A stretch of DNA of 64,000 nt from Halogeometricum limi (GTDB lineage: Archaea > Halobacteriota > Halobacteria > Halobacteriales > Haloferacaceae), in NCBI RefSeq assembly GCF_900115785.1, contig NZ_FOYS01000006.1:62001-126000 (forward strand), given 5' to 3'. The notes beneath the pieces are model-generated. The model ran no database searches. It was not told where the DNA came from and saw nothing but the letters and a program-made list of their open reading frames with translations. Position 1 is the stretch's first letter; every line of letters begins with the position of its first letter. Made by a program: the position numbers and the translations under genes. Below are positions 2,484 through 23,907 of the stretch, one piece after another.

Positions 2484-3392
2484 TCACCGGCGACCGACGC
2501 TCTCGCTCGATTCGGTCAGGGCGGCCGGGAGGTCCGCGGGTCGTCGTTCCAGCGTCTCCAGTTCCGCGCAGTACCCCGCGCCGGAGTACTCGTAGCGAGC
2601 GAGGAGTTCGTCGACGAGTTCCACCACGTCGGCCGTGTCGGGGTACGTCCGCAAGAGCCATCGGATGGGCGTCTCGATGCCGTCGCGTCGGTCCTGTTCG
2701 ACGTCCCGGACGTCGTCGTAGACGAGGTAGTGCGCTCGGTGTGTCCGGAGGTCGGCGCGGATTCGAGCGGCCGTCTCGTCGTCGAGTCCGCCCAGAAGCG
2801 CCGGAATCGCCGCGAACACGTCGATATCTGCCGCTCGGTAGTCGTACACCGTCCCCAGTACGTCCATCGCCTCTCGCTCGGTTCCGACCGCCCGGAGGGA
2901 CGGACGAGCGTACCGTTCGACGAGCGGAATCCGAGCCGAGGTCAGAAAGTAGTCCGCGACGGCCGTGCGGACGGTCTCGCGGTCGACGTCGGGGACGCTG
3001 AGGAAGGCGAACTGACTCGCGTACGCGACGTTGACCGCGAGTGCCAACCGGTAGTCTCGTTCGGCGTCCCGCGTGTCGATGAACGCGTCGAACATCGTCA
3101 TCAGCACGTCGAGTCCGACGAGGACCCGTGCGACCGTCGAACGCTCGTCGGCGGTCAGTTCCGCCTCGACGGCGACGAGCGCCGGAATCGCGCGGCGGAG
3201 TGCGCTCTCGGCACGCCAGGAGTCCAGCGGGAGGTTCAGACGGCCGCAGAAGGGGTCCGCGTCCACCCACGAGGGGAGCGTCTGCTCGGACGTCGCGGCA
3301 CACCGGAGCGTGTCGTCTCCGAGTGCCGCGTAGACGTCAGCGAGGTCGCTCTCCTCGCTTTCGAGTCCGAGTGCCTCGAACCAGTCCGTCAT
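2484..3392 (-). CDS. Isoprenoid-synthase-fold (polyprenyl synthetase-like) protein
   Basis: The protein has 302 residues and is mostly helical. The segment at 225-238, YDDVRDVEQDRRDG, closely resembles the second aspartate-rich motif of trans-prenyltransferases (DDxxD followed by D and G). The region where the first motif belongs reads FDAFID (D102, D106), so the usual DDxxD has lost its second Asp. It may be a divergent prenyl diphosphate synthase, a terpene cyclase-like enzyme, or a non-catalytic relative. It starts 48 bases after the stop of the regulator gene on the same strand, so the two are probably co-transcribed, and it converges with the terpene cyclase candidate. A role in supplying or using the same prenyl diphosphate is inference. 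Confidence 0.6.
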   Translation of the reverse strand: MTDWFEALGLESEESDLADVYAALGDDTLRCAATSEQTLPSWVDADPFCGRLNLPLDSWRAESALRRAIPALVAVEAELTADERSTVARVLVGLDVLMTMFDAFIDTRDAERDYRLALAVNVAYASQFAFLSVPDVDRETVRTAVADYFLTSARIPLVERYARPSLRAVGTEREAMDVLGTVYDYRAADIDVFAAIPALLGGLDDETAARIRADLRTHRAHYLVYDDVRDVEQDRRDGIETPIRWLLRTYPDTADVVELVDELLARYEYSGAGYCAELETLERRPADLPAALTESSESVGRR

Positions 3393-5064: not shown

Positions 5065-6633
5065 ATGAGCATGTCGCAGCGTGGGGGTTCGGTCGCTCGT
5101 CTGCCGTTCGAAGAGGTGGTGAAGGATGTCGAATCGTACGCGGTCCTCACGCTGACAGCGGACGGTCTGATCACGAGTTGGAACGACGGCTGTGCCCGCC
5201 TGTTTCTCCGGTCGCACGAGGAGGCGGTCGGCCACCCGTTCGAGACGCTCGTCCAGCAGTGGGGCTCGGACTGCATCGCGCTCTCGTCGCTGTTGGCGCG
5301 TGCCGAGAAAGCGGGTCGAAGCGAGGGCGAACAGTGGTGTCGCCGCTCTGACGGCGCGGTCTGCAAACTGCACGTCGTGGTCGAAACCGTCGACGAGGGG
5401 GGGTTCCTCGTCGTCGTCGCCGACACGACGCTGGGTCCGGCGACTCACGCCCCGTGGGACAACGAGGGCGAACTGGCCGTCCTCGACAGTATCCACCGCG
5501 TCACCCGGGAACTCGTCCGAGAGGTGACGACGGCTTCGGGCGGGGAGCACACCGAATCCACCCTCTGTGACCTCCTCGTCGAACTCCCGTTCTACACCGA
5601 GGCGTGGGTGGGCGAGTGGGACGAGACGCAGGGAGCGCTGGTCCCGCGCACCGGGTCCGTCGACGAACGAAACTACCACTTGGTCGCGACGGTGAACCCC
5701 GCGTCGCTCGGACTCACGACCGGGACGACGTTCGTCGCGCACCCGGCGAGCGAGGACGAGTTCGGCGAGGAGTCGACTCGGGAGTCGGTGGTGGAGTCGA
5801 CCGTCGTGGTTCCGATGGCCGACGGGGAGACGGTGACCGAAGCGCTCGTCGTCCACGCGCGTCGCCGCGACCCGGTCGGCGAACACGAGCGGATGGCGCT
5901 CGCGGCACTCGCCGAGACGGTCGCGTTCGTGAAACACGCTCGCTGGCACGACCCGAGACCGCGAGACCAGACGAGCGTGGAGTTCGAGTTCGTGAGCGAA
6001 CGTCCCTCGACGCCGTTCGGCGTCGTCGCCGCACAGTGCGAGTGTGACTGCTGGGTCGACGATATCGTCTCGACGACCGACGGCACCGCCGTCCAGTTCT
6101 TCTCGGTCCGCGGCGAGTCCCCGTCCCGGGTGGCGCGCCTCTTAGACGGGATGCCGGACGTCGAAGCGTATCGGTTCGTCGACCGCGGGGTCGTCCTCCG
6201 AGTCATGGGCCGCATCGGGCGTGCGGACTTTCTCACGAAACTGGTCGACGCCGGTGGCGCCGTCCAATCCGCGAGTGCGGACTCGGGCCTGTCTCAGGTC
6301 GTCGTCCGCACCACCGCCTCGAACGCCGCCCGCATCGCTGGACTCGTCCAACGCGACTACCCCGAGTGGGAGATGACGCGAAAGTGGACCGTCGCACGGA
6401 CGGCGGGTGCCCCGACGTACGCCACCGCGTCACTGGAGAACAGACTCACCGAGAAACAACTGACTGCGCTTCGGATGGCGTACCTCATGGGGTACTACGA
6501 CCACCCGCGGAAGGCGACTGCCGAAGAGGTGGCGGCCGCCCTCGGTATCTCCGGGTCGACGCTCCACCAACATCTCCAGGTCGCCGTGCGGAAACTCCTC
6601 GAGACGTCTCTCCGACAGACTGGGGTGCAGTAG
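5065..6633 (+). CDS. PAS-GAF-BAT-HTH_10 sensor regulator (bacterio-opsin activator family)
   Basis: The 522-residue protein has a PAS domain (about 18-125), a GAF-like domain (about 140-295), the bacterio-opsin-activator linker domain (about 305-450) and a C-terminal HTH_10 domain (about 460-515: 'LTEKQLTALRMAYLMGYYD...LGISGSTLHQHL'). Proteins of this type sense redox, oxygen, light or small ligands through PAS/GAF domains and bind DNA through the HTH; none has a kinase domain. It is followed by a larger protein of the same family at 6791, probably an ancient tandem duplication. Confidence 0.9.
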   Translation: MSMSQRGGSVARLPFEEVVKDVESYAVLTLTADGLITSWNDGCARLFLRSHEEAVGHPFETLVQQWGSDCIALSSLLARAEKAGRSEGEQWCRRSDGAVCKLHVVVETVDEGGFLVVVADTTLGPATHAPWDNEGELAVLDSIHRVTRELVREVTTASGGEHTESTLCDLLVELPFYTEAWVGEWDETQGALVPRTGSVDERNYHLVATVNPASLGLTTGTTFVAHPASEDEFGEESTRESVVESTVVVPMADGETVTEALVVHARRRDPVGEHERMALAALAETVAFVKHARWHDPRPRDQTSVEFEFVSERPSTPFGVVAAQCECDCWVDDIVSTTDGTAVQFFSVRGESPSRVARLLDGMPDVEAYRFVDRGVVLRVMGRIGRADFLTKLVDAGGAVQSASADSGLSQVVVRTTASNAARIAGLVQRDYPEWEMTRKWTVARTAGAPTYATASLENRLTEKQLTALRMAYLMGYYDHPRKATAEEVAAALGISGSTLHQHLQVAVRKLLETSLRQTGVQ

Positions 6634-6790
6634 CGGCGTTCAGACGAGACTCGAACCTGCGCGTCGGGAGACACCTTCACGACGCTGACACAATCGCCCA
6701 GACGGACGTGTCCACCGTGGTACGTGACGTACCGTGATATCGAGGTATCATACGTATGCTGTGTTCTCTCGTTTATCTAGCGGTGATTGG

Positions 6791-9574: not shown

Positions 9575-9743
9575 GTTCCCAGCGACGCCTCTTTCGGTAC
9601 AGATTCGGCTTCCTCGACCGCCATCCCGGTCTCGTTTCATCCTGTGACTTTCTCGACAGACGGACTGGTTACCTAACCGGGTTGGTTCTCGCGTGAACAC
9701 GGAGTAGGCCGCGGCTACACGCCACCCGAGAGCGATATTCACA

Positions 9744-9856: not shown

Positions 9857-10864
9857 ATGTCGAACATAATTCGGAAATTGCTGGTAACGTTGATGGTGCT
9901 CTCCGTCGCCTTCGCGGGAGGCGTCGGGGCCGTCAGTGCGCAGTCCGAAGTCGAGGTGAGCAACGGTGACCTCGACATCGAACTCGACGGGACGGAAATC
10001 GAGCGAAACGACGGTGACGTAGAGATCGAAGACGACGAGTCCGACCTCGACTTCGAGGTCGACAGTGACGGAACGCTCGACATCGAGAGCGGTGACGTCG
10101 AAATCGAGCAAGACCGCGACCGCGTCGAAGTCGAGAACGACGACGGCGACGGCCTCGACTTCGAGTCGTCCGACGACGGACGAACGGTCGACATCGAGAG
10201 CGGTGACGTCGAAATCGAGCAGAAGAACGGCGACGTCGAGATAGAGAACGACGACCTCGACTTCGAGGTCGAAAACGACGGCCGCAAAGTGGACATCGAG
10301 TCCGGTGATGTCGAAATCGAACAGGACGACGACGAACTGGAAGTCGAGACCGACGACTTCGACTTCGACCTCGACGGTGACGGCAGATTCGACTTCGAGA
10401 GCCTCGAAGGCCCGGTTGACATCGAGTTCAACGCCGACGGCTCCATCGAAATCGAGACCTCGCGCGGTGAGATAGAGATCAGCGCCGACGGGAAAGTCGA
10501 AGTCGACTTCGACGACCTCGAGTACGAGAACGACGACGGTAAGATCGAGTTCGAAGACGCCGCTAACGACATCGAACTCGACGGTGACGAACTCGAGTTC
10601 GAGACCGACGACCTGGAGTTCGAGAACGATGGCGACGGTGACCTCGAGTACGAGGACGCCGACAACGAAATCGAACTCGACGGCCAGGACCTCGACGTCG
10701 AGACCAGCAGCGGTCTGGACCTCGAGAGCGACGGTGACGGTGACGTCGAGTACGAAGACGACGACAACGACATCGAAGTCGACGGCGACAGCTTAGAGGT
10801 CGAGGGCCGCAACGGCCTCGACGTCGAAGCCGACGGCGACGAAGTCGAAGTTCAGTTCAACTGA
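9857..10864 (+). CDS. Exported, extremely acidic beta-repeat protein, paralogue 1
   Basis: The 335-residue product has a Sec-type signal peptide (about 1-29, ending 'AVSAQ'). After that it is almost entirely repeats of about 33-36 residues built around phrases such as VDIESGDVEIEQ and DLDFE. In the first 56 residues after the signal, 25 are Asp or Glu. Acidic and aliphatic residues alternate, the pattern of amphipathic beta-strands, so a beta-solenoid or stacked beta-hairpin fold is likely; the pattern recalls DUF4097-type adhesin repeats, though the family is not certain. No anchor, lipobox or sorting signal is seen, so it is probably released or held by ion bridges. Two paralogues follow at 11112 and 13798. 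Function is unknown; a cation-binding matrix role is inference. Confidence 0.8.
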   Translation: MSNIIRKLLVTLMVLSVAFAGGVGAVSAQSEVEVSNGDLDIELDGTEIERNDGDVEIEDDESDLDFEVDSDGTLDIESGDVEIEQDRDRVEVENDDGDGLDFESSDDGRTVDIESGDVEIEQKNGDVEIENDDLDFEVENDGRKVDIESGDVEIEQDDDELEVETDDFDFDLDGDGRFDFESLEGPVDIEFNADGSIEIETSRGEIEISADGKVEVDFDDLEYENDDGKIEFEDAANDIELDGDELEFETDDLEFENDGDGDLEYEDADNEIELDGQDLDVETSSGLDLESDGDGDVEYEDDDNDIEVDGDSLEVEGRNGLDVEADGDEVEVQFN

Positions 10865-10913
10865 GCGCGACTTCCCACCCACCCGAACACGCACCACCGC
10901 AGTGCGACCGACG

Positions 10914-10925
10914 CGGACTTTTTGT
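10914..10925 (+). terminator. T-tract terminator candidate after acidic-repeat gene 1
   Basis: CGGACTTTTTGT occurs here and again, identical, after the third paralogue (14858-14869). A short run of T after a gene is typical of archaeal termination, and conservation between copies supports function. Confidence 0.45.
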
Positions 10926-11010
10926 GAATCTTCGGTTACCTAGCCGGTGTCGTCTCCGGCGTCGAACAGCCTAGGCGTCACCTCCACACCCGTGAGAAAC
11001 CTCTGTTTCG

Positions 11011-11111
11011 GTATCCCACTGTAGTCGCAACTGCCCTCCGCACCACGACTCGCGGTCTACCCCGGCGTCGACGATGCGAGACCTGAGACGACGTGTGGGA
11101 CGTACGCAACT
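11011..11111 (+). repeat. Leader of acidic-repeat gene 2, copy of 9744-9856
   Basis: See the copy at 9744-9856. Blocks GTATCCCACT, TAGTCG, CTGCCCT and GTGGGACGTA are shared, with small insertions and substitutions between them. Confidence 0.6.
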
Positions 11112-12128
11112 ATGACGAACGTAATTCGAACAGTACTGGTGGCGTTTATGGCGCTCTCCGTCGTCCTCGCGGGCGGCGTCGCGAGCGTCAGTGCACAGCA
11201 GTCCGAAGTCGAGGTGAGCGACGGCGACGTCGACATCGAACTCGACGGACAGAAGGTGGAACGAAAGGGTGGAACTCTCCAGATAGAAGACGACGAAGCC
11301 GAACTCGACTTCGAACTCGACAGCGACGGGAAGTTGGACCTCGAGAGCCGGCAACTCGAGGTCGAACAGGACGGCGACGACGTCGAGATAGAGAACGACG
11401 ACGGCGACGGCCTCGACTTCGAGTCGTCCGACGACGGCGCTCGAATCGACGTGGAGAGCGGCGACGTCGAAATCGAGCAGAGCGACGGCGACGTGGAGGT
11501 CGAGAACGACGACCTCGACTTCGAGACGTCCGACGACGGCGACCGCGTCGACATCGAGAGCGGCGACGTCGACATCGAACAGGACGACGGCGAGTACGAA
11601 GTCGACACGGACGACTTCGAGTTCGACCTCGACGGTGACGGCAAGTTCGACTTCGAGAGCCTCGAAGGCCCAGTCGATATCGAGTTCAACTCCGACGGCT
11701 CCATCGAAATCGAGACCGAACGCGGCGAGATAGAGATCAGCGCCGACGGAAGCTTCGAGGTCGACTTCGACGACCTGGAGTACGAGAACGACGGTGACGG
11801 TGACATCGAGTTCGAGGACGCCGACAACGAGATCGAACAGGACGCCGACGGCGGACTGGAGGTCGAGACCGGCGACCTGGAGTACGAGAACGACGGCGAC
11901 GGTGACGTGGAGTTCGAGGACGCAGACAACGACATCGAACTCGACGGCGAAGACCTCGAAGTCGAGACGAGCGACGACCAGGACCTCGAAAGCGACGGTA
12001 ACGGCCGGGTCGAGTTCAGCGACGGTGAGAACGACATCGAAGTCGACGGCGACCGACTCGACTTCAAGGGTCGAAACGGCCTGAACGTCGAACTGAACGG
12101 CGACGACGTCGAAGTGTCGCACGACTGA
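11112..12128 (+). CDS. Exported, extremely acidic beta-repeat protein, paralogue 2
   Basis: This is a 338-residue paralogue of the preceding protein with the same plan: a signal peptide ending 'SVSAQ', the mature start 'QSEVEVSDGDVDIELDG', then tandem alternating acidic/aliphatic repeats to the C-terminus. A less repetitive middle segment ('DFESLEGPVDIEFNSDGS') is conserved between copies, so the array has a defined centre and not only free repeats. Its leader is a duplicate of that of paralogue 1. The product is predicted to lie outside the cell and has no visible anchor. The small gene on the other strand (12304-12471) and the DAC-domain gene come next. Confidence 0.8.
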   Translation: MTNVIRTVLVAFMALSVVLAGGVASVSAQQSEVEVSDGDVDIELDGQKVERKGGTLQIEDDEAELDFELDSDGKLDLESRQLEVEQDGDDVEIENDDGDGLDFESSDDGARIDVESGDVEIEQSDGDVEVENDDLDFETSDDGDRVDIESGDVDIEQDDGEYEVDTDDFEFDLDGDGKFDFESLEGPVDIEFNSDGSIEIETERGEIEISADGSFEVDFDDLEYENDGDGDIEFEDADNEIEQDADGGLEVETGDLEYENDGDGDVEFEDADNDIELDGEDLEVETSDDQDLESDGNGRVEFSDGENDIEVDGDRLDFKGRNGLNVELNGDDVEVSHD

Positions 12129-12303
12129 ACGCGAACCCGACCGACCGCGCGAGACCCTCACGGGTCACCGCGTCCGCTGTGTATTTTGTCGACTCTGCCG
12201 AAGAACACCGGACGGAGTGGTGTGCGCCGCGGCGGGCGGCGTCGGCACGCCTACTCGGATAGCTATCGGAAGAAGGAGGAGGGCGAGGAGGTGAACACGA
12301 CGA

Positions 12304-12471
12304 CTACGCCAGGTCCGCCGCGGACACCGGGGCCGTCGAGTTGATCCACGCGTCGGGGTTCAGCCGGTCGTATATCATCACCGTGCCGCCCGCGAGGATC
12401 AACTCGACGTAACGGCCCGTGTTCGGTTCCTGTGGTGCTTCAGTTCCGTTGTTGGGGTCGACTGTGGCCAT
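12304..12471 (-). CDS. 55-residue haloarchaeal small protein, DUF7331-like
   Basis: The minus-strand frame encodes 55 residues with the core 'RYVELILAGGTVMIYDR' followed by 'NPDAWI', a pattern I associate with the haloarchaeal small-protein family DUF7331 (from memory). It has no Cys, no signal peptide and no membrane segment. Its function is unknown. It is surrounded by plus-strand genes, so it is its own transcription unit. Confidence 0.65.
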   Translation of the reverse strand: MATVDPNNGTEAPQEPNTGRYVELILAGGTVMIYDRLNPDAWINSTAPVSAADLA

Positions 12472-12934
12472 GGTAGTTGCCACACGGCGGTACTGGCGGG
12501 GGCGGCGCCGTCGCGCTTCGTCGCCGGACCCGAGACACCGTCTTGTGGTCTCGACTACTAGTACGTGCGGTTGGTGCCTGTAGTTCGCCGTTCACAGGAT
12601 AGGTCGCCCGGCACCTACGAGCGTAGGACACCGTTCACCAGCCGAGAACTGCGACCCTCTCGCGTCGGACTCGTCTCTCGGACTTCGGGGCGACGACGCG
12701 ACGGGTCCGAGGCGGTGCCACGAATCCTAGGGCCGTCTGACGCTAGCCAGTCAGGTAGTAGCTACTACAGCGTTCCGAGCGAACTGTAGGTTGTCTCTCG
12801 TGAGACGCTCGGAGACGACGAACACCGACTCCCGCTGACGCCCTCCACGACGCCCTCACTCGACCGACTCCGACAACACCGAGAGATTCAGTATCTCGCT
12901 TCGCCGACGCACACCGGCGAGCACACGACGGACA
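12472..12934. other. Intergenic region with tandem palindromes upstream of the DAC gene
   Basis: This is non-coding. Besides the inverted repeats at 12737-12768 (listed separately) I see no gene. Bases 12885-12900 contain a weak TATA-like AGTATC about 40 bases before the DAC start. Confidence 0.4.
12737..12768. promoter_or_regulatory. Two adjacent inverted repeats upstream of the DAC gene
   Basis: CTGAC-GCTAGC-CA-GTCAG (12737-12754) is followed without a gap by the perfect 14-base palindrome GTAGTAGCTACTAC (12755-12768). They lie about 170-200 bases before the DAC start codon. They could be operators, or hairpins if transcribed. Confidence 0.4.
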
Positions 12935-13453
12935 ATGAGTACCGAACAGACACCCACCGAACTCGTCTTCCGCTGTCTCGAACGGCTCCGTCTGCACTTC
13001 CCCCACTGGGGAGAGACGTTCGTCAGAGGCCCCGGGTTGTACGTCGCAGTCGTCGACCCCGACGTCCTACCCACCTACGCCCAACCGTTGGGAACGAACA
13101 GATGGCCCGTCGCCGAGACGCCCACTGTCTTCGACGCAGAGCAACTCTACCGGACGGCCACCGCGGTGGCCTACGCGATGGACGGTGCCGTCGTCGTCGA
13201 ACCGGACGGTCGGATTCGCGAACAGATGGTCCGGTTCTTCGACCTCGACGACGAGCGAACGGCGGACGACGCCGGCCCCGAGTACCGACCGTGGATGGGT
13301 ACCAGACACGTGAGTGCCGTCGAGACGTCCCTTCGAGCGGGCGTCTGCGCGACGCTCACGCTGAGCGAAGAGACCGGACGCGTGACGATGTTCCGCGACG
13401 GTCGAATCGTCTCCGAACTCCCGGCCGCCGAGGCCGTTCCCACTCACGAATAA
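12935..13453 (+). CDS. Stand-alone diadenylate cyclase (DAC/DisA_N) domain protein
   Basis: The 172-residue product is little more than a DAC domain, which in active members condenses two ATP into c-di-AMP. The DGA motif is at 83-85 ('AMDGAVVV'), the GTRH motif at 122-125 and the SEETG segment at 144-148, all in canonical order. The RHR signature reads RHV, so the third position differs and activity is uncertain. Haloarchaea normally have one DacZ-type cyclase with an extra N-terminal domain; this protein is shorter and lacks it, so it is probably a paralogue. It is soluble. It sits between the second and third acidic-repeat genes, which suggests, but does not show, a link to osmotic or envelope control. 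Confidence 0.75.
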   Translation: MSTEQTPTELVFRCLERLRLHFPHWGETFVRGPGLYVAVVDPDVLPTYAQPLGTNRWPVAETPTVFDAEQLYRTATAVAYAMDGAVVVEPDGRIREQMVRFFDLDDERTADDAGPEYRPWMGTRHVSAVETSLRAGVCATLTLSEETGRVTMFRDGRIVSELPAAEAVPTHE

Positions 13454-13797
13454 CCGATGTTTTCGGCGCTCACCCGACGACTGACGAGCGACGGCAGCCA
13501 AATTTTTCCTGACACGTCTTCCGAGAGACCTGTCGAACGGCGTCGATAACCGTCCGACGACGGACCGAACGGTTACCGAAGCGGGTAGGGGGCGTGTCAG
13601 TTAACGGGTCAGGTACAGACTACTCGGAACTCCCAGTCGAATCTGTGGTTGTCTCCCGGGGACGGCGGTTCGCCGTTCCACGGTGGTGCCCTCCTTCGCG
13701 GGAACACACGGGAGGTCCGGGGACGATGTCCTCGTCCACGCGGGTTGTACCCGTCGCGGGGACTCGTCTCCGGCGCGGTGACAAAGAGAGAAAACCC
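13454..13797. other. Upstream region of acidic-repeat gene 3
   Basis: This is a non-coding leader. It lacks the strong similarity that the leaders of paralogues 1 and 2 share. An in-frame open frame from 13594 extends paralogue 3 upstream, but it is arginine-rich and precedes a perfect signal peptide, so I treat it as non-coding. Confidence 0.45.
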
Positions 13798-14805
13798 ATG
13801 AAGAGCGTATTTAGAACTGCACTGACCCTGATTATGGCGCTGGTCCTCGTCGTAGGACCGGGAGCGATGGCCGTCAGTGCGCAGTCTGACGTCGAGGTGA
13901 GTAACGGCGACGTCGATATCGAAGTGAACGGACAGGAAATCGAAAAGAGCGGCGACCGCGTGGAAGTCGAAGACGACGAGTCCGACCTCGACTTCGAGGT
14001 CGAAGACAACGGCGCGACCGTAGACATCGAGTCCGGTGACGTCGAAATCGAGCAGAAGGACGGTGCCGTGGAAGTCGAGAACGAAGACCTCGACTACGAA
14101 ACCTCCGCCGACGGCTCTGAAGTCGACATCGAGTCCGGCACGCTCGAAATAGAACAGAAGGACGGCGCCGTGGAAGTCGAGGACTCCGACCTCGACCTCG
14201 ACTACGAGACCTCCGACAACGGCGCGGTGGTGGACATCGAGTCTAACGGCGTCGAAATCGAACAGGACGGCGACGACGTGGAAGTCGAGAGCGACGACGT
14301 CGACCTCGAATCGAGCGACGGTAGCTTCGACTTCGAGAGCATGAGCGGTCCCGTCGACATCGAAATCGACGCTGACGGCACCTACGAAGTCAAGTTCGAC
14401 GGCGGCGAGATCGAGTCCGACGGCAACGGCGAACTCGAAGTCGAGTTCGACGGCCTCGACTACGAGAACGACGGCGACGGTGACCTCGAATTCACCACCG
14501 ACGACGTCGACATCGAACAGGACGGCGACGAACTCGAACTCGACACGGCCGACGTGGAGTACGAGAACAACGGTGACGGCGACCTCGAGTTCGCCGACGC
14601 CGAGACTGACATCGAACAGGACGGCGCTGGCCTCGAAGTCGACACCGAATCCGGCCTCGACTACGAGAACGACGGCGACGGTGACGTGGAGTTCGAGGAC
14701 GGCGAGACCGACATCGAACTCGACGGTAGCGACCTCGACGTCGAGGGCCGCAACGGCCTCGACGTGGAAGTCAACGACGACGAGACGGAAGTTCAGTTCG
14801 ACTGA
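13798..14805 (+). CDS. Exported, extremely acidic beta-repeat protein, paralogue 3
   Basis: Starting at the ATG at 13798 (MKSVFRTAL), the 335-residue product has a signal peptide ending 'AVSAQ' and then the same acidic/aliphatic repeats as the proteins at 9857 and 11112. It is the most diverged copy: 'DYETS' units replace many 'DFES' units and the central segment reads 'FESMSGPVDIEIDADG'. The same T-tract sequence follows it as follows paralogue 1. The start is chosen because the signal peptide begins there. Confidence 0.8.
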   Translation: MKSVFRTALTLIMALVLVVGPGAMAVSAQSDVEVSNGDVDIEVNGQEIEKSGDRVEVEDDESDLDFEVEDNGATVDIESGDVEIEQKDGAVEVENEDLDYETSADGSEVDIESGTLEIEQKDGAVEVEDSDLDLDYETSDNGAVVDIESNGVEIEQDGDDVEVESDDVDLESSDGSFDFESMSGPVDIEIDADGTYEVKFDGGEIESDGNGELEVEFDGLDYENDGDGDLEFTTDDVDIEQDGDELELDTADVEYENNGDGDLEFADAETDIEQDGAGLEVDTESGLDYENDGDGDVEFEDGETDIELDGSDLDVEGRNGLDVEVNDDETEVQFD

Positions 14806-15452: not shown

Positions 15453-16763
15453 TCAGCGGATGAAGATGTTGATGCGGTCGTTGTCGGAGACGATGTTCCG
15501 GTTGAGACGCGTCGTCGGCGAGCGGAAGACGGCGATACCGACGTCGTTCCGTCTGACCGTCGACCCGGTCACGAGCGTCTGAGACGACGTGCGGACGTCG
15601 ACACCAGTCCCGCCGTTACTGGTGACGAGAGCGTCTCGGACCGTCGTGTTCGAGGCGCTGAGGACGCTGATACCGGTCTCGTCGTTCCGTTCGACGACGG
15701 TCTCGGTCAGGCTGGTTCCGTTCGAGAAGTCGACGGCCGCGCCGACGACGACATTGTTCGAGAAGTCGCCTTCCCGAACGCTGGTCCCCTCGGAACCGTC
15801 GACGAGGAGGCCACCCAGTTCGTTCCGTTCGCTCGTCACGCCGAACAGTGAGGTGTCCGTCGCGCCGAGGACGACGACGCCGACGCCGTCGTTCCGGGTC
15901 AGTTCGCTTGTCACCACGGACGCGTTCGTCGCGTTCCAGAGGAGGATACCGAACCCGCTGTCTCTCACCTCCACGTCTCGAACGGTCGTCGCGTCCGCGC
16001 CGTCGACGTAGACGCCGACGTACCACCCGGTGACTCTGAGGTCGGTGACGGTGACGTTCGTGAGCGCCGGTTGCTCCGGAGCGGTGTCGTTGTCGGGCGA
16101 CTCGGCCGGTGGAGCGGTGTCGTTACCGGGTGTCTGTCCCGGGGGAACGGTGTCGTTGTCCGGCGTCTCACTCGGTGGTGTCGTATCGTTGTCGGGAGTG
16201 TCGTCCGGTGACGTGTCGTTTCCGGGCGCGTCCGTCTCGTTCGCGGACGCCGGAGACCGCTCGACGGGCCTCGTGGGCGTCAGCGGCCCGTCCGCTCCCA
16301 GTATCTCGTCGGTGGGCGCGTTCAGCGACGTGGCGGTGAACATCGCCGGTGGCGACTGCGCGCCGTCGTTCGGTGTCGATTGGTTCGGCGTCTCGTTCGG
16401 CACCTGCGGCGTCGGGTCGACGGTCACCGCGGCGCTCACCGGAGCCGCGAGTTCGAGGGACCGTCGGTCGTCGCGGAAGTTCGAGGCGGACGGGACGTTG
16501 TCGCCGTCCCAGGTGCCTTCTATGCGCTTTCCGTCGCCGTCGAGGACCACGTCGCTCGCGGCGATTCGGATACACGTCGCGTCGGTCACGTCTCTGAGGT
16601 TCTCCGTGAGGACGTACCGACCGGGTTCCGTAATCGTGGTACACGCGTCTATCGGAGTCGGTTCTGCTGCCACTGGTTGGATGGTCGCGAAGGGGCCGGC
16701 CGTCACACTCGCGACGAGGACCAACGTCACGGCGATAACTGCGTATCGGATGCGTCTGTGCAT
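15453..16763 (-). CDS. Exported right-handed beta-helix (NosD-like) protein with sequon-rich linker
   Basis: The start at 16763 (MHRRIRYAV) gives 436 residues with a Sec signal peptide ending 'QPVAA'. The first part ('CIRIAASDVVLDGDGKRIEGT') is the typical opening of a NosD-type parallel beta-helix. A linker of about 130 residues then intervenes, rich in Pro, Asn, Asp and Thr, with five NDT triplets and at least three other N-x-S/T sequons. The helix then resumes with about ten rungs ('TVRDVEVRDSGFGILLW...VTSNGGTGVDV'). Such proteins bind or modify polysaccharides outside the cell. The linker is a likely target of AglB N-glycosylation. A TATA-like element at 16787-16794 on the minus strand supports this leaderless start over the Met at 16790. 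Confidence 0.8.
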   Translation of the reverse strand: MHRRIRYAVIAVTLVLVASVTAGPFATIQPVAAEPTPIDACTTITEPGRYVLTENLRDVTDATCIRIAASDVVLDGDGKRIEGTWDGDNVPSASNFRDDRRSLELAAPVSAAVTVDPTPQVPNETPNQSTPNDGAQSPPAMFTATSLNAPTDEILGADGPLTPTRPVERSPASANETDAPGNDTSPDDTPDNDTTPPSETPDNDTVPPGQTPGNDTAPPAESPDNDTAPEQPALTNVTVTDLRVTGWYVGVYVDGADATTVRDVEVRDSGFGILLWNATNASVVTSELTRNDGVGVVVLGATDTSLFGVTSERNELGGLLVDGSEGTSVREGDFSNNVVVGAAVDFSNGTSLTETVVERNDETGISVLSASNTTVRDALVTSNGGTGVDVRTSSQTLVTGSTVRRNDVGIAVFRSPTTRLNRNIVSDNDRINIFIR

Positions 16764-17038: not shown

Positions 17039-17737
17039 ATGACCCGCCTGAATCAGAAGCCGCCAGCGCCCGCCGGGAGGACGGTGGAACTCGAGTACCG
17101 AATCAGAGACGACCGCGTCTTCCTCGTCGCCGAGTCGGGCAAGATGAACTGCGAACTCGTCCTCAACGAGGTGGTCCCCCAGTCGGGTGGAAACCTCTTG
17201 GAGTTCGTCACGGTCCGCGACGCCCCGGCGGACAGTGTGCTCGCGGACGCACTCGACCGCCCCGACGTACTGGACGCCCGCGTCATCACCGAAGACGCGG
17301 ACGCCGGACTCTTAGAGCTCCTCGTGACCGACCCCGAACTCGTGGGACTGGTCGGCGACGCCCGTGCGATTCCGCGTCTCGTTCGCGCGGACCGGGGCGT
17401 CGGCCACGTCGTCGTCGAGGTGCCGCCGGGCGGGGACCCGCAGCGAGTCGTCGCGATGTTCCGCGAGCGCCATCCCGGGTCGAAACTCGTCGCGCGCCGC
17501 GAACACGACGGCGCTCCACTCTTCACCGAGTACGTCCTCCGCGAACGAGTGCTCGACGAACTCACCGACCGGCAACGAGAGGTCTTTCTCACCGCCTACG
17601 AGATGGGCTACTTCGACCAACCGCGCCGGGTGTCTGCCGTCCAGTGTGCGGACTACCTCGGTATCTCACAGTCGACGTTCAGTCAACATTTCCGCGTCGC
17701 ACTTCGGAAGATACTCGACGGGCTCTTGGCCGTCTGA
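17039..17737 (+). CDS. HTH_10 (bacterio-opsin activator type) transcriptional regulator
   Basis: The 232-residue protein has the bacterio-opsin-activator domain (about 15-160) and a C-terminal HTH_10 (about 175-228: 'LTDRQREVFLTAYEMGYFDQPRR...LGISQSTFSQHF'), without PAS or GAF domains. Such short forms respond to a signal through the BAT domain itself or a partner. It diverges from the beta-helix gene and ends 30 bases before the end of the oppositely oriented repeat-protein gene, so it could control either neighbour. Confidence 0.88.
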   Translation: MTRLNQKPPAPAGRTVELEYRIRDDRVFLVAESGKMNCELVLNEVVPQSGGNLLEFVTVRDAPADSVLADALDRPDVLDARVITEDADAGLLELLVTDPELVGLVGDARAIPRLVRADRGVGHVVVEVPPGGDPQRVVAMFRERHPGSKLVARREHDGAPLFTEYVLRERVLDELTDRQREVFLTAYEMGYFDQPRRVSAVQCADYLGISQSTFSQHFRVALRKILDGLLAV

Positions 17738-17767: not shown

Positions 17768-18280
17768 TCAGTCGTCCCGACGAACCTCCAGCAACTGACC
17801 GTTCTCGTCGTAGATTCGAACGACTTTGTCGCCGTCGTCGTCCTTTCTCTCGCGGCGGCGGAGCACACCGTTCTCGTCGAACTCCTCGCGTCTCTCGTCG
17901 CCGTCGTCGTCCTTCCTCTCGCGGAGGCGGAGGACGCCGTTCTCGTCGTACACCTCGCGTCTCTCGTCGCCGTCCGCTTCCTCCTCTTCGAACAGGCGGA
18001 GGACGCCGTTCTCGTCGTACACTTCTCGGGTCTCGTCGCCGTCGTCGTCCGTCACTTCGCGCACCGTTCCGGACGGCCCCGTACAGAAGTAGAACTCCTC
18101 GTCGTCGTCCTTGTAGCGGACGAACCGAGCACACCGTTCTGTCGACCCGCTCCGGTACTCGACGTCCGCGGCCGACGCCGGTGTGGCCGCGGCGATGACC
18201 CAGAGCGCTCCCGATACCGATAGTGCGGTCGCTCGGAGATATCGACGCCGAGTCGGACCGTGACGTCTCTCACGCTCCAT
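17768..18280 (-). CDS. Exported protein of about five 22-residue YDENG repeats
   Basis: The 170-residue product has a Tat-like signal ('TRRRYLRATALSVSG', cleavage near 'ASAA' at about 38) and then a tandem array. Each unit reads roughly D-D-D-G-D-E-R-R-E-V-Y-D-E-N-G-V-L-R-L-x-E. The YDENG-x-L core resembles MORN or YwqK-type repeats, which form beta-hairpins; the DDDGD clusters could bind cations. A cysteine pair (C51 and C67 by my reading) lies before the array. The function is unknown. Neighbours are the HTH_10 gene (tail to tail) and the subtilase gene, which lies upstream on the same strand. Confidence 0.7.
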   Translation of the reverse strand: MERERRHGPTRRRYLRATALSVSGALWVIAAATPASAADVEYRSGSTERCARFVRYKDDDEEFYFCTGPSGTVREVTDDDGDETREVYDENGVLRLFEEEEADGDERREVYDENGVLRLRERKDDDGDERREEFDENGVLRRRERKDDDGDKVVRIYDENGQLLEVRRDD

Positions 18281-18359: not shown

Positions 18360-20204
18360 TCAGTCGTCGCACCCCTGCGTCTCGAACTCGACGGGTTCGC
18401 CGCGCACTTCGACGTCGTCGCTGATGCCGACGGCGACGTACACGTACGTCGTGTCGGGTTCGAGGTCTTCGACCTCCTCGTCGAAGTCGTCCGGGTCGTC
18501 CGTGTCGCCCGCCTCGACGCGGCGGAGCGTTCCGCTCTTGTCGCCCTTCTCCCAGCAGTCGAAGACGGTCACGACTTCCTCGACGCGCCCGTCGACGCTG
18601 GTCACGTAGCCGACCAAGTCGGCCTCGTCCTCTTCGACGTCTTCTGGCTCGCCCGTCTCGATGCTGAACAGGTCCGTCGGGTTGGCTCCGGTCGTGAAGT
18701 CCGTCTGCCGACCGGTGACGCGTTCGCCACCCGCCACCGCGAACGCCACGAAGGCGTACGTCGTGTCGCTGGAGAGGCCGTCGAGCGTCGTCTCGAATGC
18801 GCCCGTCTCGGAGCGTTCGCCGACGTCGACCGTCTCTTTCGTGCCGTCTTCGTCGTCGACGTCCCAGTACTCGAAGCCGACGGTGGCGGCGGACTGCTCG
18901 CCGAGGCTGTCGAGCGACCCCGTGATGGTGGCGCTCGTCTTCTCGACGTCCGTCGCGCCGCCCGTGGAGACGGCGAAGCCGTCGCCCGTGTCACCGTCGT
19001 CGCCACCGTCGCTTCCCTCACCGACCGCGGCGTCGACGTTGAGCAAGCCGTTGCCCTGTTCGTCGTCGTCCATCCCGAGGTCCTCGGTGGTCGAAGCGAG
19101 TCGGCCGCGAATCTCGTCTGCGGAGTAGCCGGCGGCCTTCAGCGTGGCGACTGCGCCCGTGACGTGCGGCGTCGCCATCGACGTGCCCGAGTAGTACTTG
19201 TAGTCTCCGTCGATGACGGTCGAGGGGATTCGGACGCCCGGTGCGACGATTTCGACGGCGTCGCCGGTCAGAGAGAAGTCGGCCAAGTCGTCGTCGTCGT
19301 CGGTGGCACCGACCGCGATGGCTTCCGGGTAGGCCGCCGGGTAGTGGACCGACTTCTCGTCGGGTTCCTCGTTACCCGCCGCGGCGACGACGACGACGCC
19401 CTTGTCCGTCGCGTACTTGACGGCGTCGTGGATTATCTCCGAGGAACTGGTGCTCCCGAGACTCAGACTCGCGACGTCGTAGCCCTGGTCTGCAACCCAC
19501 ACGAGACCGTCGGCGATGCTCGATGCGCTGCCCGACCCGCTCGCGGAGATGACTTTGACGCCGTGGAGCGTCGTGTCCGGACAGACGCCGACGACGCCGC
19601 CACTGTTCGAGACGGCACCGGCGATACCGGCGCAGTGGGTTCCGTGGCTGTGGTCGTCGTCCCAGTCGCGGCGACAGCCGTCGTCACACGGGACGGTGGC
19701 GTAGCCCTCGCCGAGGTTGGCCTTCAGGTCCGGGTGGTCGCTGTCGATACCCGTGTCGATGATGGCGACGTGCGTCTCTTTGCCCGTCACACCCTCGTCG
19801 TGGACCGTATCGGCACCGATTCGGTCGACACCCCACGGAGTGACCTGACGCTCGACGTCGACTCGCTCGACGCTCGACTGCCCTTCGACTTCGTGGCCGA
19901 GAACCGAGAACTCCGTCTCCGTCTCGACGTATCGAACGCCCGGTCGAGCCTGTATCGACGGCTCCGTGCTCACCGGGAAGTCGCCGACGACGACGTAGCC
20001 GCGGTCTCCGAGGTCTAGTTCACGAACGACGCGTTCGGCACGGTTCTTGACGGCGCTCGCGGCGGACTTCGATTCGGTCCCCACGATTCGCCGTTCTGTC
20101 GACTCGGCCGCCGACGCTTCTCCGACGAGTCCAGCGCCAGCCCCGAGGACACACAGCATCCGCAATAATTCACGCCTTGACGATTGCTTCGCCCAATCGG
20201 TCAT
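18360..20204 (-). CDS. Tat-exported subtilisin-like serine protease (halolysin type) with two Fn3-like domains
   Basis: Starting at 20204 (MTDWAKQSSRRELL) the protein has 614 residues. A Tat signal is at 8-33, an inhibitor-I9-type propeptide at about 40-120, and the peptidase S8 domain at about 125-380 with the triad D150 (IIDTGID), H187 (HGTHCAG) and S342 (GTSMATPH), and oxyanion N278. After an acidic glycine-rich linker come two beta-sandwich domains (about 395-490 and 500-605) that look Fn3-like and similar to each other. It is an extracellular protease that folds in the cytosol before Tat export and matures by removing its propeptide. It could process the exported proteins encoded nearby, but general nutrition is equally likely. 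A TATA element at 20231-20238 supports the start. Confidence 0.92.
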   Translation of the reverse strand: MTDWAKQSSRRELLRMLCVLGAGAGLVGEASAAESTERRIVGTESKSAASAVKNRAERVVRELDLGDRGYVVVGDFPVSTEPSIQARPGVRYVETETEFSVLGHEVEGQSSVERVDVERQVTPWGVDRIGADTVHDEGVTGKETHVAIIDTGIDSDHPDLKANLGEGYATVPCDDGCRRDWDDDHSHGTHCAGIAGAVSNSGGVVGVCPDTTLHGVKVISASGSGSASSIADGLVWVADQGYDVASLSLGSTSSSEIIHDAVKYATDKGVVVVAAAGNEEPDEKSVHYPAAYPEAIAVGATDDDDDLADFSLTGDAVEIVAPGVRIPSTVIDGDYKYYSGTSMATPHVTGAVATLKAAGYSADEIRGRLASTTEDLGMDDDEQGNGLLNVDAAVGEGSDGGDDGDTGDGFAVSTGGATDVEKTSATITGSLDSLGEQSAATVGFEYWDVDDEDGTKETVDVGERSETGAFETTLDGLSSDTTYAFVAFAVAGGERVTGRQTDFTTGANPTDLFSIETGEPEDVEEDEADLVGYVTSVDGRVEEVVTVFDCWEKGDKSGTLRRVEAGDTDDPDDFDEEVEDLEPDTTYVYVAVGISDDVEVRGEPVEFETQGCDD

Positions 20205-20230
20205 CGCTCGGCTGTAGTTATGGCCACTAG

Positions 20231-20238
20231 TTATATGC
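20231..20238 (-). promoter_or_regulatory. TATA box of the subtilase gene
   Basis: On the minus strand this reads GCATATAA, about 27 bases before the ATG at 20204, giving a nearly leaderless transcript. Confidence 0.5.
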
Positions 20239-20443
20239 ACTGCCGATGCTCAGCGCTCCCGAGCCGGATTGCACCGATAGACACCAAGTTGCGTTATCGT
20301 CTGTCATTTCATATGATAACAACCCACATGATTTTTGCCCCGATTAGTTACCCCTTTCCACCCCGACACGAACGGACTAGGTTGCGGGAAGGTTACTGGG
20401 CTAGCGTCGGAGTCTTACCGGTTTCACGACCTACTGGTGGCGT

Positions 20444-20925: not shown

Positions 20926-22487
20926 CGCGCGTTCGTCGGTCCGTCCTCGCGCTTCTGTTGGTCGTCGTGGTCGTCACCGCCGGGAGTGTTCCCCTGGGCG
21001 TCGCGGCGACGACGGCGTCGCCAGCCGCCGCGACCGCTGTCGACTCGACTGCCCGTCTCGACGGACTCCAGACCGGTCTCGCGCAGTCGGACCCGTCCGG
21101 GCTTCCGACGGAGACGGCCGACCCCATCGCCCAACAGACGCCGGCCGAGAACGTCACTCGGGTCCGCGCGATTCACGTCGCCCCCATCGTCCCCGCCCTC
21201 GACTTCTTCGTCGAGAACGACGTCGTCGTCGCCGACATCGCCTACGGGCGAGCGAGCGAGTACGTCCGCGTCGAACCCGACCGGAGAGATTACGAGTTCG
21301 AGATAGAGGTCAACTCGTCGGGTGACGAGATATTCGAGACCGAAATCGAACTCGAACAGAACGTGGACTACTCCGTCGTGATGGCCGCGCGGACGTCCAG
21401 TTCCGGAGCGATCAGCTTCCAACCGGTGCTCACGACCGACGACTACGCTCGACCGACCGCAGAGAACGCCTCCGTCCGAATCGTCCACGCGTCGCCGGAC
21501 GTCTCGCGGTTCGCGATGACCGTCGAAGAGACGGACACGGTGCTCGCGAACGGTCTCTCGTTCCGCCAGTCCGGTGACTACGTCACCCTTCCGGCGGGAG
21601 CGACGACGCTCGAACTCCGCAGTTCGACGCCGTCCGGAGACGTTCTGGCGTTGTTCGACGTCCCCCTCCGCGGGGGCACCGCTTACACCGTCGTCGTCAC
21701 GGGTTACGTCGACGTCGAAGACGCGCCCGTCGACGTCCCCGTCGAACTCGTCGTCGTCGCCGACGTCGGCCCGGGAAGCGACGCCCGGATTCCGGCGAGC
21801 GAAGAAGAGACTCCCGCCACACCGCCGTCTATCCGCGCGGTCCACGCCTCGTCGTTCCTCCCGGCGACCGACGTCCGTATCGACGACCGAGTCGTGGCCG
21901 GCGGACTCTCGTTCGGCGACGTCAGCGCCTACGAACCGGTCGAGTCCGACACCGGCAACTACTCCGTCGACATCGCGGTGAACTCGACGGGCACGAGCAT
22001 CTCCAGTGGCGTCGTCCCCCTCGCCTCCGGGGAGCGATACACCGTCGTGATGGCCGCGACGGTTCCCGAACCCGGCCGAATCGCGTTCGCGCCCACGCTC
22101 CTCGTCGACGACTTCGAGACGCCCGCCGCGGACACGGCCGCCGTGCGAGTCGTCCACGCGTCGCCGGACACCGCGTCGCTCGACGTGACCGCCGTACAGA
22201 CGGGGACTGCGCTGGCGAGCGACCTCTCGTTCCGCCAGTCCGGTGACTACGTCGTCCTCCCCGCCGGCGTCGTGACGCTCGACGTCCGTGCGGACTCCAC
22301 CGACGGGACGAGTGCCGCCGAGACGGTCCACGCGACGCTCGAAGACGGCTCCGTCTACACGATATTCGTCGTCGGCTTCGTGAACCCGGACGCGACCGGA
22401 TTCGACGCGCCCTTCGAGGTCCTCCTCGCGGAGGATACGAGCGAACGCAGTCAGTCGACCGTCCCCCTCGAGTGCGGTGCGGTCTGA
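20922..22487 (+). CDS. Exported DUF4397-repeat protein
   Basis: The 521-residue product uses a GTG start and has a Sec signal peptide (about 1-29, hydrophobic run 'VLALLLVVVVVTAGSVPLGV'). The mature part contains two copies of a roughly 200-residue unit. Each unit has two DUF4397 halves, marked by 'RAIHVAP' or 'RAVHASS' and by 'VRIVHASPD' or 'VRVVHASPD', with the phrase 'LSFRQSGDYV' in both units. DUF4397 domains are extracytoplasmic beta-sandwiches of unknown role. There is no C-terminal anchor. A 'REDRP' tail from the preceding small frame overlaps its start by four bases. Confidence 0.85.
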   Translation: MTRVRRSVLALLLVVVVVTAGSVPLGVAATTASPAAATAVDSTARLDGLQTGLAQSDPSGLPTETADPIAQQTPAENVTRVRAIHVAPIVPALDFFVENDVVVADIAYGRASEYVRVEPDRRDYEFEIEVNSSGDEIFETEIELEQNVDYSVVMAARTSSSGAISFQPVLTTDDYARPTAENASVRIVHASPDVSRFAMTVEETDTVLANGLSFRQSGDYVTLPAGATTLELRSSTPSGDVLALFDVPLRGGTAYTVVVTGYVDVEDAPVDVPVELVVVADVGPGSDARIPASEEETPATPPSIRAVHASSFLPATDVRIDDRVVAGGLSFGDVSAYEPVESDTGNYSVDIAVNSTGTSISSGVVPLASGERYTVVMAATVPEPGRIAFAPTLLVDDFETPAADTAAVRVVHASPDTASLDVTAVQTGTALASDLSFRQSGDYVVLPAGVVTLDVRADSTDGTSAAETVHATLEDGSVYTIFVVGFVNPDATGFDAPFEVLLAEDTSERSQSTVPLECGAV

Positions 22488-22509: not shown

Positions 22510-23907
22510 TCAGTCGTGTTCGGTCAGTTCGACGCGGAGTTCGTCGCCGCGCTGTGTGACCTCGAACCACGGTCCGTCGAGTTCGACGTTCTCCCCGCGT
22601 ATCTCGACGTCGAACGACCCTTCCGGAAGTCTGATTTCGACGTCGAGTCTGTCACCGACTCGTTCGTAATCGACGGTCGGCCCCTCGACGTACACGTCCT
22701 CTCCGTTCCGTTCGATGCGCCACTCGCCCGACTCGACGTCGAAGTCGCGCCGGTTGTCCTCGGCCTCGAAGTCAACGTCGACGCCCCGGACGCGGAGTTC
22801 GCCGCCTCGCTGTTCGATGTCGAACCCCGGCCCGGTCACCTCCACGTCGTCGCCTCGCACCTCGACTTCGAGCGTCTCGTCCCCGACCGAAATCTCGACG
22901 TCGATGCGCCCGTCGTCGTTCTCGTAGTCGACGCCCGGCCCCTCGACGTCGACGCCGTCGTCGGTGTGGACGACGCGGAACGTGCGCGTCGGTGCGGATT
23001 CGAAGGTCGTCTCTTCGGCGGTGACGCTCGACTCCTCCGCGGCGGCGTCTCCCGTCTCGGACTCGTTCTGTGCAGATTCGTCCGCTCTCGTCTCGTTTCG
23101 CACCACTTCGCCGTCTCCCTCCTCGGGCGTCGTCTCCGCGCCGACTCCCGTAGAACGCTCCGTCACGTTCGGTGCGCCCGCCCGACCGTCGTCGCTCGTG
23201 ACCGCCGTGTCACTCCCTTGGGCGTCGAGTTCGCGGGTCTCTGGATTATCGGCGTCCCTCTCTCCCGCGACACTCTCGGCGGCCGAACTCGACTCTGACG
23301 CTGGCGTCGACGTCGGACTGGGCGTCTCCGGGGACTCCGTCTCGGTGGCCGCCGGCGAGTCGGTGGCGTTCGAGGAGTCCGAATCGTCCGGTGTCTCGGT
23401 GGACGCGTCCGCCCCGTCCGACTCCGAGGCGTTCTCCGTCTTCGACTCCCCGCTCACGTCGCCTCCCGCCGTCGACTGACTGTCGGTGCTCGGCGTCGGT
23501 TCGACGTCCCGTACTACATCGTCTGAGCGACTGAGACCCGCACCTCGGGTCAGTTTCTCCCGCTCTCGCGTTCCGGATTCGGTTTCGGGTTCGGACTCGG
23601 CTTCGGACTCCATCTCTGCCTCGGATTCGGAATCAGCGCTCGGGGTCGAGTCGTTTCGAGTCGCCGTGACCGTCGTCTCCGACTCGGTGTCGTGGTCGCC
23701 TTCGGCCGCCGCTTCTACCTCGGCGGGAGGGACGAGTTCGGTGACGGTTCGCTGGACCATCTGGACGTCCACTCCGGCGGAACTGAGCGCAGAGACGAGT
23801 ACGATCAGCGCCACGATGGAGTGCTTGTACATTGGCTCACCCAGTCGAGAGACGACCGTCTCGGCGAGTCGGAGTTCTCTCAGCGTAGATATTCGTCTCG
23901 TTACCAT
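22510..23907 (-). CDS. Stalked surface protein with C-terminal acidic beta-repeat module
   Basis: The 465-residue protein has an N-terminal hydrophobic segment ('YKHSIVALIVLVSALSSAGV', about 26-46) that may be an uncleaved anchor or signal peptide. A long low-complexity stalk follows, rich in Ser, Thr, Glu, Asp and Pro (about 70-315). The C-terminal 150 residues are beta-repeats such as 'VDVEGPGVDYENDDGRIDVEI' and 'GFDIEQRGGELRV'. The repeat style is that of the three acidic proteins at 9857-14805 but with more Arg and Gly. The ATG at 23907 is close to a minus-strand TATA-like element (23925-23931); the Met at 23832 is the alternative start. It is probably displayed on the cell surface. Function is unknown. 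Confidence 0.7.
   Translation of the reverse strand: MVTRRISTLRELRLAETVVSRLGEPMYKHSIVALIVLVSALSSAGVDVQMVQRTVTELVPPAEVEAAAEGDHDTESETTVTATRNDSTPSADSESEAEMESEAESEPETESGTREREKLTRGAGLSRSDDVVRDVEPTPSTDSQSTAGGDVSGESKTENASESDGADASTETPDDSDSSNATDSPAATETESPETPSPTSTPASESSSAAESVAGERDADNPETRELDAQGSDTAVTSDDGRAGAPNVTERSTGVGAETTPEEGDGEVVRNETRADESAQNESETGDAAAEESSVTAEETTFESAPTRTFRVVHTDDGVDVEGPGVDYENDDGRIDVEISVGDETLEVEVRGDDVEVTGPGFDIEQRGGELRVRGVDVDFEAEDNRRDFDVESGEWRIERNGEDVYVEGPTVDYERVGDRLDVEIRLPEGSFDVEIRGENVELDGPWFEVTQRGDELRVELTEHD

What the first reader, a model, noticed from the sequence alone, without database searches (positions are those of the whole stretch)
9857..14805. Three tandem paralogues of an exported hyper-acidic beta-repeat protein
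Each is a signal peptide plus about nine 33-36-residue repeats in which Asp/Glu alternates with Val/Ile/Leu/Phe. In one counted 56-residue stretch 25 residues are acidic, high even for haloarchaea. The regular alternation implies a highly charged beta-solenoid, which could bind cations, coat the S-layer or form a matrix. I know of no described function for such a family.
Basis: partly seen in the sequence, partly recalled or inferred. Interest (0 to 1): 0.76.

Follow-up and report, generated by a model that had tools for sequence, protein, structure and literature searches.

The report
Haloarchaeal secreted hyper-acidic sheet proteins
Three neighbouring genes encode secreted proteins that are nearly half acidic and are predicted to form long flat sheets with one oily and one negatively charged face; they sit in a recurring gene island with their own type of sensor-regulator, which points to an undescribed, regulated polyanion that salt-loving archaea put outside the cell.

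Summary
Three paralogues (335, 338 and 335 aa; the third starts at 13798, not 13594) have Sec-type signal peptides, are 41-44% Asp/Glu with net charge -118 to -123, and repeat every 34 residues. The beta-solenoid reading is not supported. AlphaFold2 (pLDDT 91.7) gives 36 short strands, and the best fold matches are open single-layer beta-meanders (CPAP TCP domain, OspA). All 73 strand hydrophobics lie on one face and 86 of 87 strand acidics on the other.

The family has no Pfam, NCBIfam or PDB member. It is rare and patchy (12 of 391 class genomes; named carriers include Haloferax mediterranei). It lies in a recurring island with PAS/GAF-BAT-HTH_10, HxlR and FilR1-type regulators, a subtilase, DUF4397 exoproteins and a helical ~300-aa protein. 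In six other genomes with 34-66 HTH_10 proteins each, the closest relative of the window's regulator is the one at the acidic cluster. In other genera, regulators of the same clade sit beside unrelated secreted polyanions (Ser/Asp/Glu-rich, or Tat-exported), against 0 of 18 control HTH_10 loci.

Best reading: a sensor-controlled secreted polyanion that binds divalent cations and forms a surface layer or matrix. The regulatory link is well supported; the biochemical role is inferred.

The parts
9857..10864 (+). Hyper-acidic exoprotein copy 1 (335 aa, Sec signal peptide, nine 34-aa units)
11112..12128 (+). Hyper-acidic exoprotein copy 2 (338 aa)
13798..14805 (+). Hyper-acidic exoprotein copy 3 (335 aa from the ATG at 13798; the 13594 start is too long)
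22510..23832 (-). Fourth, diverged member: signal peptide, Ser/Thr/Glu-rich linker, C-terminal acidic beta repeats
   Evidence: profile hits E 3e-10 and 2.5e-17; sequence and relatives in L040, L048, L063
6734..9574 (+). Dedicated PAS/GAF-BAT-HTH_10 regulator (start GTG 6734 or ATG 6851)
   Evidence: Pfam BAT 146 bits, HTH_10 73 bits; orthologues at acidic clusters in six other genomes; one clade
5116..6633 (+). Second PAS-BAT-HTH_10 regulator, conserved next to the first in Halegenticoccus and Halomarina loci
17039..17737 (+). Small BAT-HTH_10 regulator; 63% identical relative directly downstream of an acidic gene in L048
3441..4268 (-). FilR1/HVO_A0261-type winged-helix regulator, conserved cassette member
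2484..3392 (-). About 300-aa all-helical protein with LDEFID and DDxRDxxxD motifs; conserved cassette member of unknown function
   Evidence: no Pfam or PDB match
12304..12471 (-). DUF7331 small protein; a DUF7331-like protein also lies in the H. mediterranei cluster (below the Pfam cut-off)
12935..13453 (+). DAC (DisA_N) domain protein between copies 2 and 3
   Evidence: PF02457 35 bits, cut-off 27
18360..20240 (-). Exported subtilase (S8); relatives near acidic genes in L040, L046, L047, L048, L063
20444..20821 (+). HxlR-type regulator, recurrent in the islands
20967..22487 (+). Exported DUF4397 protein, recurrent in the islands
15453..16763 (-). Exported NosD-type right-handed beta-helix protein with Thr/Pro/Asn linker (island member in the window only)
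17768..18280 (-). Exported hyper-acidic MORN_2-type repeat protein
   Evidence: PF07661 34 bits, cut-off 29.6
9667..9678 (+). Inverted repeat GGTTACCTAACC upstream of copy 1, candidate operator (lead only)
10934..10945 (+). Near-copy GGTTACCTAGCC upstream of copy 2; the only other site with at most 1 mismatch in 64 kb

Best explanation
The three genes are the structural output of a dedicated, sensor-controlled gene island. They encode Sec-exported, rod-like polyanions: each is a long single-layer beta-meander of about 36 strands with one hydrophobic face and one Asp/Glu face. The hydrophobic faces are probably buried by self-assembly (pairs, trimers or fibres). The acidic face then presents a dense lattice of carboxylates that binds Ca2+/Mg2+ and water at the cell surface or in an extracellular matrix. 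Transcription is switched by the adjacent PAS/GAF-BAT-HTH_10 regulator, probably in response to redox, oxygen or light; the co-encoded exported subtilase may trim or recycle the polymer. Shown here: paralogy, export signal, charge, repeat, strand amphipathicity, patchy family, and linkage to one regulator clade. Predicted: the fold. Inferred: assembly, cation binding, surface or matrix role, the sensed signal, the protease's part.
For: Export signals and lack of a C-terminal anchor. Amphipathic strands: 73 of 73 hydrophobics on one face and 86 of 87 acidics on the other, shuffle mean 52 of 73. Confident model, pLDDT 91.7, with matches to open single-layer meanders; the CPAP TCP domain is such a freestanding sheet with DG-type turns (PMC3776556). 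Tandem expansion in several genera. Dedicated regulator: the best homologue of window 6734-9574 lies at the acidic cluster in all six other genomes tested, 422-638 bits against at most 252 for the next gene outside the clusters, among 34-66 HTH_10 genes each; it is directly upstream and co-directional in the window, L040, L041, L046 and L048. Regulators of the clade pair with three unrelated kinds of secreted polyanion; 7 of 10 loci chosen by the regulator alone (3 of 6 genera) have one, against 0 of 18 control HTH_10 loci. The unrelated sequences share export and strong net negative charge, which argues that charge is the selected property. The regulators form one clade.
Against: No binding, localisation or expression data. 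The fold matches have low TM-scores (0.15-0.28 by query length for the best matches), the model is a monomer, and no coordinates were available to check strand pairing. The DxDGDG-like loops of some repeats are not conserved in relatives, so no specific Ca2+ site is shown. Three loci with the regulator (G014, G346, G414) have no acidic exoprotein in the 16-20 kb read around it. The seven regulator-chosen hits include four close relatives of one genus.
Confidence: 0.5

Rival explanations
1. Partner or substrate of the co-encoded subtilase: the acidic proteins are released, activated or degraded by the protease, or inhibit it, for example as precursors of antagonistic fragments like HFX_0892/HapP cleaved by halolysin.
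For: Subtilases recur near acidic genes in the window, L040, L046, L047, L048 and L063; the window subtilase's best relatives in G409 and G407 are island genes. A protease-precursor antagonism exists in H. mediterranei (PMC12893001), which also carries an acidic cluster.
Against: HapP activity needs alpha-helical N-termini, while these proteins are predicted all-beta. In G013 and G368 the best subtilase relatives lie elsewhere, and G261 has only distant ones. The antagonism paper mentions no pHM500 or HFX_6 gene and no acidic protein.
Confidence: 0.14
2. Surface adhesin or binding scaffold: the sheet edge or hydrophobic face recognises a specific partner, as the CPAP TCP edge binds a proline-rich peptide of STIL, and the charge is only haloadaptation of a soluble scaffold.
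For: Best fold match is the TCP domain, a peptide-binding edge sheet (PMC3776556). The invariant core DFES.SGPVDIE interrupts the repeat and could be a binding site.
Against: Charge is far beyond haloadaptation (41-44% against a 17% mean); the regulator clade also serves disordered-looking polyanions with no such repeat.
Confidence: 0.15
3. True beta-solenoid, or intertwined trimeric beta-helix of the sarcoglycan/VgrG/phage-spike type, in which the three paralogues form a heterotrimer.
For: Weak sub-threshold Pfam hits to Sarcoglycan_1, DUF2345 (VgrG), a beta-helical trimerisation domain (26.4 bits, cut-off 27), LiaG and DUF2807. One hydrophobic face must be buried somewhere.
Against: All hits are below cut-off and may reflect composition; Foldseek top matches are single-layer sheets, not helices; copy number per locus is not three elsewhere.
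Confidence: 0.15
4. Composition artefact or spurious ORFs in acidic, GC-rich haloarchaeal DNA.
For: High GC gives long antisense ORFs here.
Against: Signal peptides, dN/dS of about 0.35-0.5 between copies, and conserved relatives in several families with conserved neighbours.
Confidence: 0.02

Closest known systems
CPAP/Sas-4 TCP10 (G-box) domain, PDB 4bxr
   Same: Predicted open single-layer antiparallel beta-meander with short DG-type turns; Foldseek E 1.7e-5, probability 1.00 (PMC3776556)
   Different: No sequence homology shown; TCP is about half as long, intracellular and eukaryotic; here one face is hydrophobic and the other acidic; TM-score only 0.17 (query) and 0.26 (target)
OspA single-layer sheet and MORN/MORN_2 repeat proteins
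   Same: Strand-turn repeats in an extended sheet; a MORN_2-type acidic exoprotein lies in the same island
   Different: No MORN signature in the three proteins; not lipoproteins; far more acidic
Toastrack DUF4097 / DUF2807 / LiaG families
   Same: Repetitive beta proteins of the envelope; sub-threshold similarity; a Tat-exported relative in L051 just passes DUF4097 (23.2 bits, cut-off 22.9)
   Different: The window proteins do not pass any of these models; no such structure among the top Foldseek matches
RTX and other Asp-rich Ca2+-binding secreted repeats
   Same: Secreted, Asp/Gly-rich turns, plausible divalent-cation binding
   Different: No nonapeptide GGxGxDxUx, no type I secretion signal; Sec signal peptide instead
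'Aspartate-rich repeat' secreted proteins of hypha- and spore-forming haloarchaea (PMC10067837)
   Same: Secreted Asp-rich repeats in haloarchaea, proposed there to bind Ca2+
   Different: Identity with this family could not be tested (supplementary tables not available)
Bat (bacterioopsin activator) and HVO_1357 regulators
   Same: BAT plus HTH_10 domains (PMC7824242)
   Different: The island regulator belongs to a clade linked to secreted polyanions; Bat and HVO_1357 themselves were not placed in that tree

Membership tests
Beta-solenoid proteins | Coil of parallel strands with a closed hydrophobic core | tested here: inconclusive
   The model has 36 short strands joined by 2-5-residue turns; fold matches are open single-layer meanders; coordinates not available for pairing analysis
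TCP10/G-box domain | Fold similarity to an open antiparallel meander | tested here: inconclusive
   Foldseek probability 1.00, E 1.7e-5, but TM 0.17 to the query
TCP10/G-box domain | Sequence membership (Pfam model) | tested here: not met
   No TCP10_C hit at E up to 1
DUF4097/DUF2807/LiaG (Toastrack and relatives) | Score over the curated cut-off | tested here: not met
   DUF2807 16.6 against 24.2; LiaG 21 against 285; DUF4097 not listed
Sarcoglycan / VgrG trimeric beta-helices | Score over the curated cut-off | tested here: not met
   Sarcoglycan_1 23.8 against 32.5; DUF2345 22 against 30.7; trimerisation domain 26.4 against 27
RTX proteins | Nonapeptide GGxGxDxUx repeats and type I secretion | tested here: not met
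   Repeat unit is 34 aa without the nonapeptide; N-terminal signal peptide; no RTX Pfam hit
Secreted polyanion linked to a BAT-HTH_10 clade (grouping proposed here) | Regulator of the clade at the locus | tested here: met
Secreted polyanion linked to a BAT-HTH_10 clade (grouping proposed here) | Divalent-cation binding outside the cell | not testable with these tools
   needs purified protein or cells

The most novel reading that the evidence does not exclude
Haloarchaea carry a mobile island type in which one clade of PAS/GAF-BAT-HTH_10 sensor-regulators controls a secreted polyanion layer, and evolution has repeatedly swapped the polyanion (amphipathic beta-meander, Tat-exported beta type, disordered Ser/Asp/Glu type) while keeping the regulator. 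The window's version would be a natural, self-assembling, freestanding beta-sheet polymer with one hydrophobic and one carboxylate face, an architecture described as unique when found in CPAP.
Probability: 0.35. Interest if true: 0.82.

Novelty: new variant of a known kind. Interest (0 to 1): 0.62.

Why it matters
If true, a whole class of haloarchaeal exoproteins annotated only as 'hypothetical' would gain a common logic: regulated production of an extracellular polyanion. Because one cluster lies in the genetically tractable Haloferax mediterranei (pHME505, 145355-160347), the idea is directly testable. The fold would add a natural example of a long freestanding amphipathic beta-sheet, of use for materials and for understanding how proteins stay folded at molar salt. 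The regulator clade would give a first target set for an orphan group of the many BAT-HTH_10 regulators.

Tried and rejected
First genome-contig scan with a three-sequence profile found nothing because its patterns were too specific; a wider profile worked. Viral contigs: no relatives. PHROGs and PDB sequence searches: nothing for the acidic family. PADLOC: nothing for it; only generic subtilase hits for the protease.

Promoter motif GGTTANNTAACC: clear only at copies 1 and 2, which may simply share recent ancestry; elsewhere the excess over control genes is slight, so it is kept as a lead.

AlphaFold2 of the ~300-aa helical protein alone failed (pLDDT 46), so its isoprenoid-synthase likeness rests on motifs only. 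I considered EF-hand-like DxDGDG loops as specific Ca2+ sites; they are not conserved in relatives, so they are not claimed. Nitrogen storage and gas-vesicle roles were considered and dropped for lack of any supporting gene.

The regulator tree is the quick version; the careful search did not finish.
Full report
Observation. The window comes from a haloarchaeon with a 3.6-Mb genome. The three ORFs are real: 9857-10864, 11112-12128 and 13798-14805. Each begins with a Sec-type signal peptide ending in SAQ and has a 306-309-residue mature part that is 41-44% Asp/Glu with net charge -118 to -123. Proteins of at least 150 aa from the window and from control loci in this and other haloarchaea average 17% Asp/Glu, with a 99th percentile of 33%. 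The 34-residue period and the acidic-hydrophobic alternation exceed every one of 1000 shuffles. Nucleotide differences between copies are more often synonymous than expected (dN/dS 0.35-0.51), so the proteins are under selection. Relatives differ by whole 34-aa units around a core motif DFES.SGPVDIE and share a C-terminal EGRDGFDVE motif.

Fold. A 12-sequence alignment gave an AlphaFold2 model of copy 1 with mean pLDDT 91.7 and pTM 0.83: 36 strands of 4-6 residues joined by turns of 2-5 residues rich in Gly, Asn and Asp. All 73 strand hydrophobics fall on one face and 86 of 87 strand acidics on the other; within-strand shuffles average 52 of 73. The top solved-structure matches are the CPAP/Sas-4 TCP domain, other open sheets (OspA) and ciliary proteins; the viral matches include MORN proteins. 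The TCP domain is described as a single-layer sheet of about 20 antiparallel strands joined by type I turns, often at PDG motifs, with no hydrophobic core, unique among natural proteins known to the authors (PMC3776556). TM-scores are low, as expected for long twisted sheets but also weak as proof, so I treat the open meander as likely rather than shown. A free sheet with one hydrophobic face should self-assemble; this is inference.

Distribution. In the same genus, none of four other genomes has the three genes. In the family, 3 of 170 genomes match; in an even sample of the class, 12 of 391. Named carriers are Haloferax mediterranei ATCC 33500 plasmid pHME505, Halegenticoccus tardaugens, Halomarina halobia and Haloarculaceae archaeon H-GB1-1. 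Most carriers have tandem or multiple copies. No relative was found in viral contigs.

Neighbourhood. The same neighbours recur around the acidic genes in distant genomes: a large PAS/GAF-BAT-HTH_10 regulator, a second PAS-BAT-HTH_10 protein, a small BAT-HTH_10 protein, HxlR and FilR1/HVO_A0261 regulators, a subtilase, DUF4397 exoproteins, a further acidic member with a linker, and a ~300-aa helical protein. The helical protein occurs in 9 of 391 genomes, 6 of which are among the 12 with the acidic family (hypergeometric p about 2e-8, ignoring relatedness).

Regulator link. In six other genomes with 34-66 HTH_10 genes each, the best homologue of window 6734-9574 lies within about 15 kb of the acidic genes in every case, at 422-638 bits; the best gene elsewhere scores at most 252 bits. 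I then searched 391 genomes with the regulator alone and read the loci of carriers lacking the beta-type acidic genes. Seven of ten have another secreted, strongly acidic protein: five have ~600-aa Ser/Asp/Glu-rich proteins (two genera), and two have other acidic exoproteins. G383, and G025 from the acidic-family search, have Tat-exported acidic beta proteins in tandem beside the same regulator type. Eighteen control loci around other HTH_10 paralogues of the same genomes have none (Fisher p = 1e-4 by locus, 0.01 by genus). The linked regulators form one clade apart from 19 other HTH_10 proteins (97% SH-aLRT, quick tree); most of them were chosen by similarity, so this supports but does not independently prove the grouping.

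Mechanism. The sequences of the three polyanion kinds show no common family in the profile searches run, yet share export and strong negative charge. The simplest reading is that the regulator controls a secreted polyanion whose charge is the selected property. At molar salt, a dense carboxylate surface can still hold divalent cations and water; a cell-surface or matrix role follows from export and lack of catalytic motifs. BAT-type regulators are known for oxygen-dependent control of bacterioopsin (Bat, cited in PMC7824242), so redox, oxygen or light is the likely input. These last steps are inference.

Known literature. No described family fits. [quoted passage not shown] whether they are this family could not be tested. 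A protease-precursor antagonism in H. mediterranei (PMC12893001) raises a protease-linked alternative, which I rate lower because that effector is helical and the text names no gene of this cluster.

Noticed in passing
window 12935-13453 (+): 172-aa DAC/DisA_N-domain protein between copies 2 and 3; it keeps a DGA motif but reads TRHVS where active diadenylate cyclases have an RHR motif (motif from memory), and it scores only 13 of 430 bits for DacZ. It may be a degenerate or sensor-type c-di-AMP protein.
   Followed up: partly
window 2484-3392 (-): About 300-aa all-helical family with LDEFID and DDxRDxxxD motifs, reminiscent of isoprenoid synthases, with no Pfam or PDB match; it co-occurs with the acidic family.
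   Followed up: partly
window 17768-18280 (-): Secreted hyper-acidic MORN_2-type protein with 23-aa repeats (69-bp DNA repeats); a second acidic beta-repeat type in the same island.
   Followed up: no
L097 6233-8113, L099 1933-3744, L100 13556-17483, L103 11457-13259 and 16155-18047: About 600-aa secreted Ser/Asp/Glu-rich proteins, in places as tandem pairs, beside regulators of the same clade; they resemble Ser-Asp repeat polyanions.
   Followed up: partly
L107 799-4842, L051 7765-12334: Tandem arrays of Tat-exported acidic beta proteins (MADLSKRQYLKYAGAS...); one in L051 just passes the DUF4097 (Toastrack) cut-off.
   Followed up: partly
L056 1500-4625 and 12001-16492 (H. mediterranei pHME505): Five hyper-acidic exoproteins (46-52% Asp/Glu) in a model organism, all annotated hypothetical; some carry an extra C-terminal segment (such as DLTREEIIELGTTVGADDYDDLADMDVE) not seen in the window proteins.
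   Followed up: partly
L055 9149-9712: A remote 187-aa acidic beta-repeat exoprotein elsewhere in the window's own genome (C3:84176-84700).
   Followed up: no
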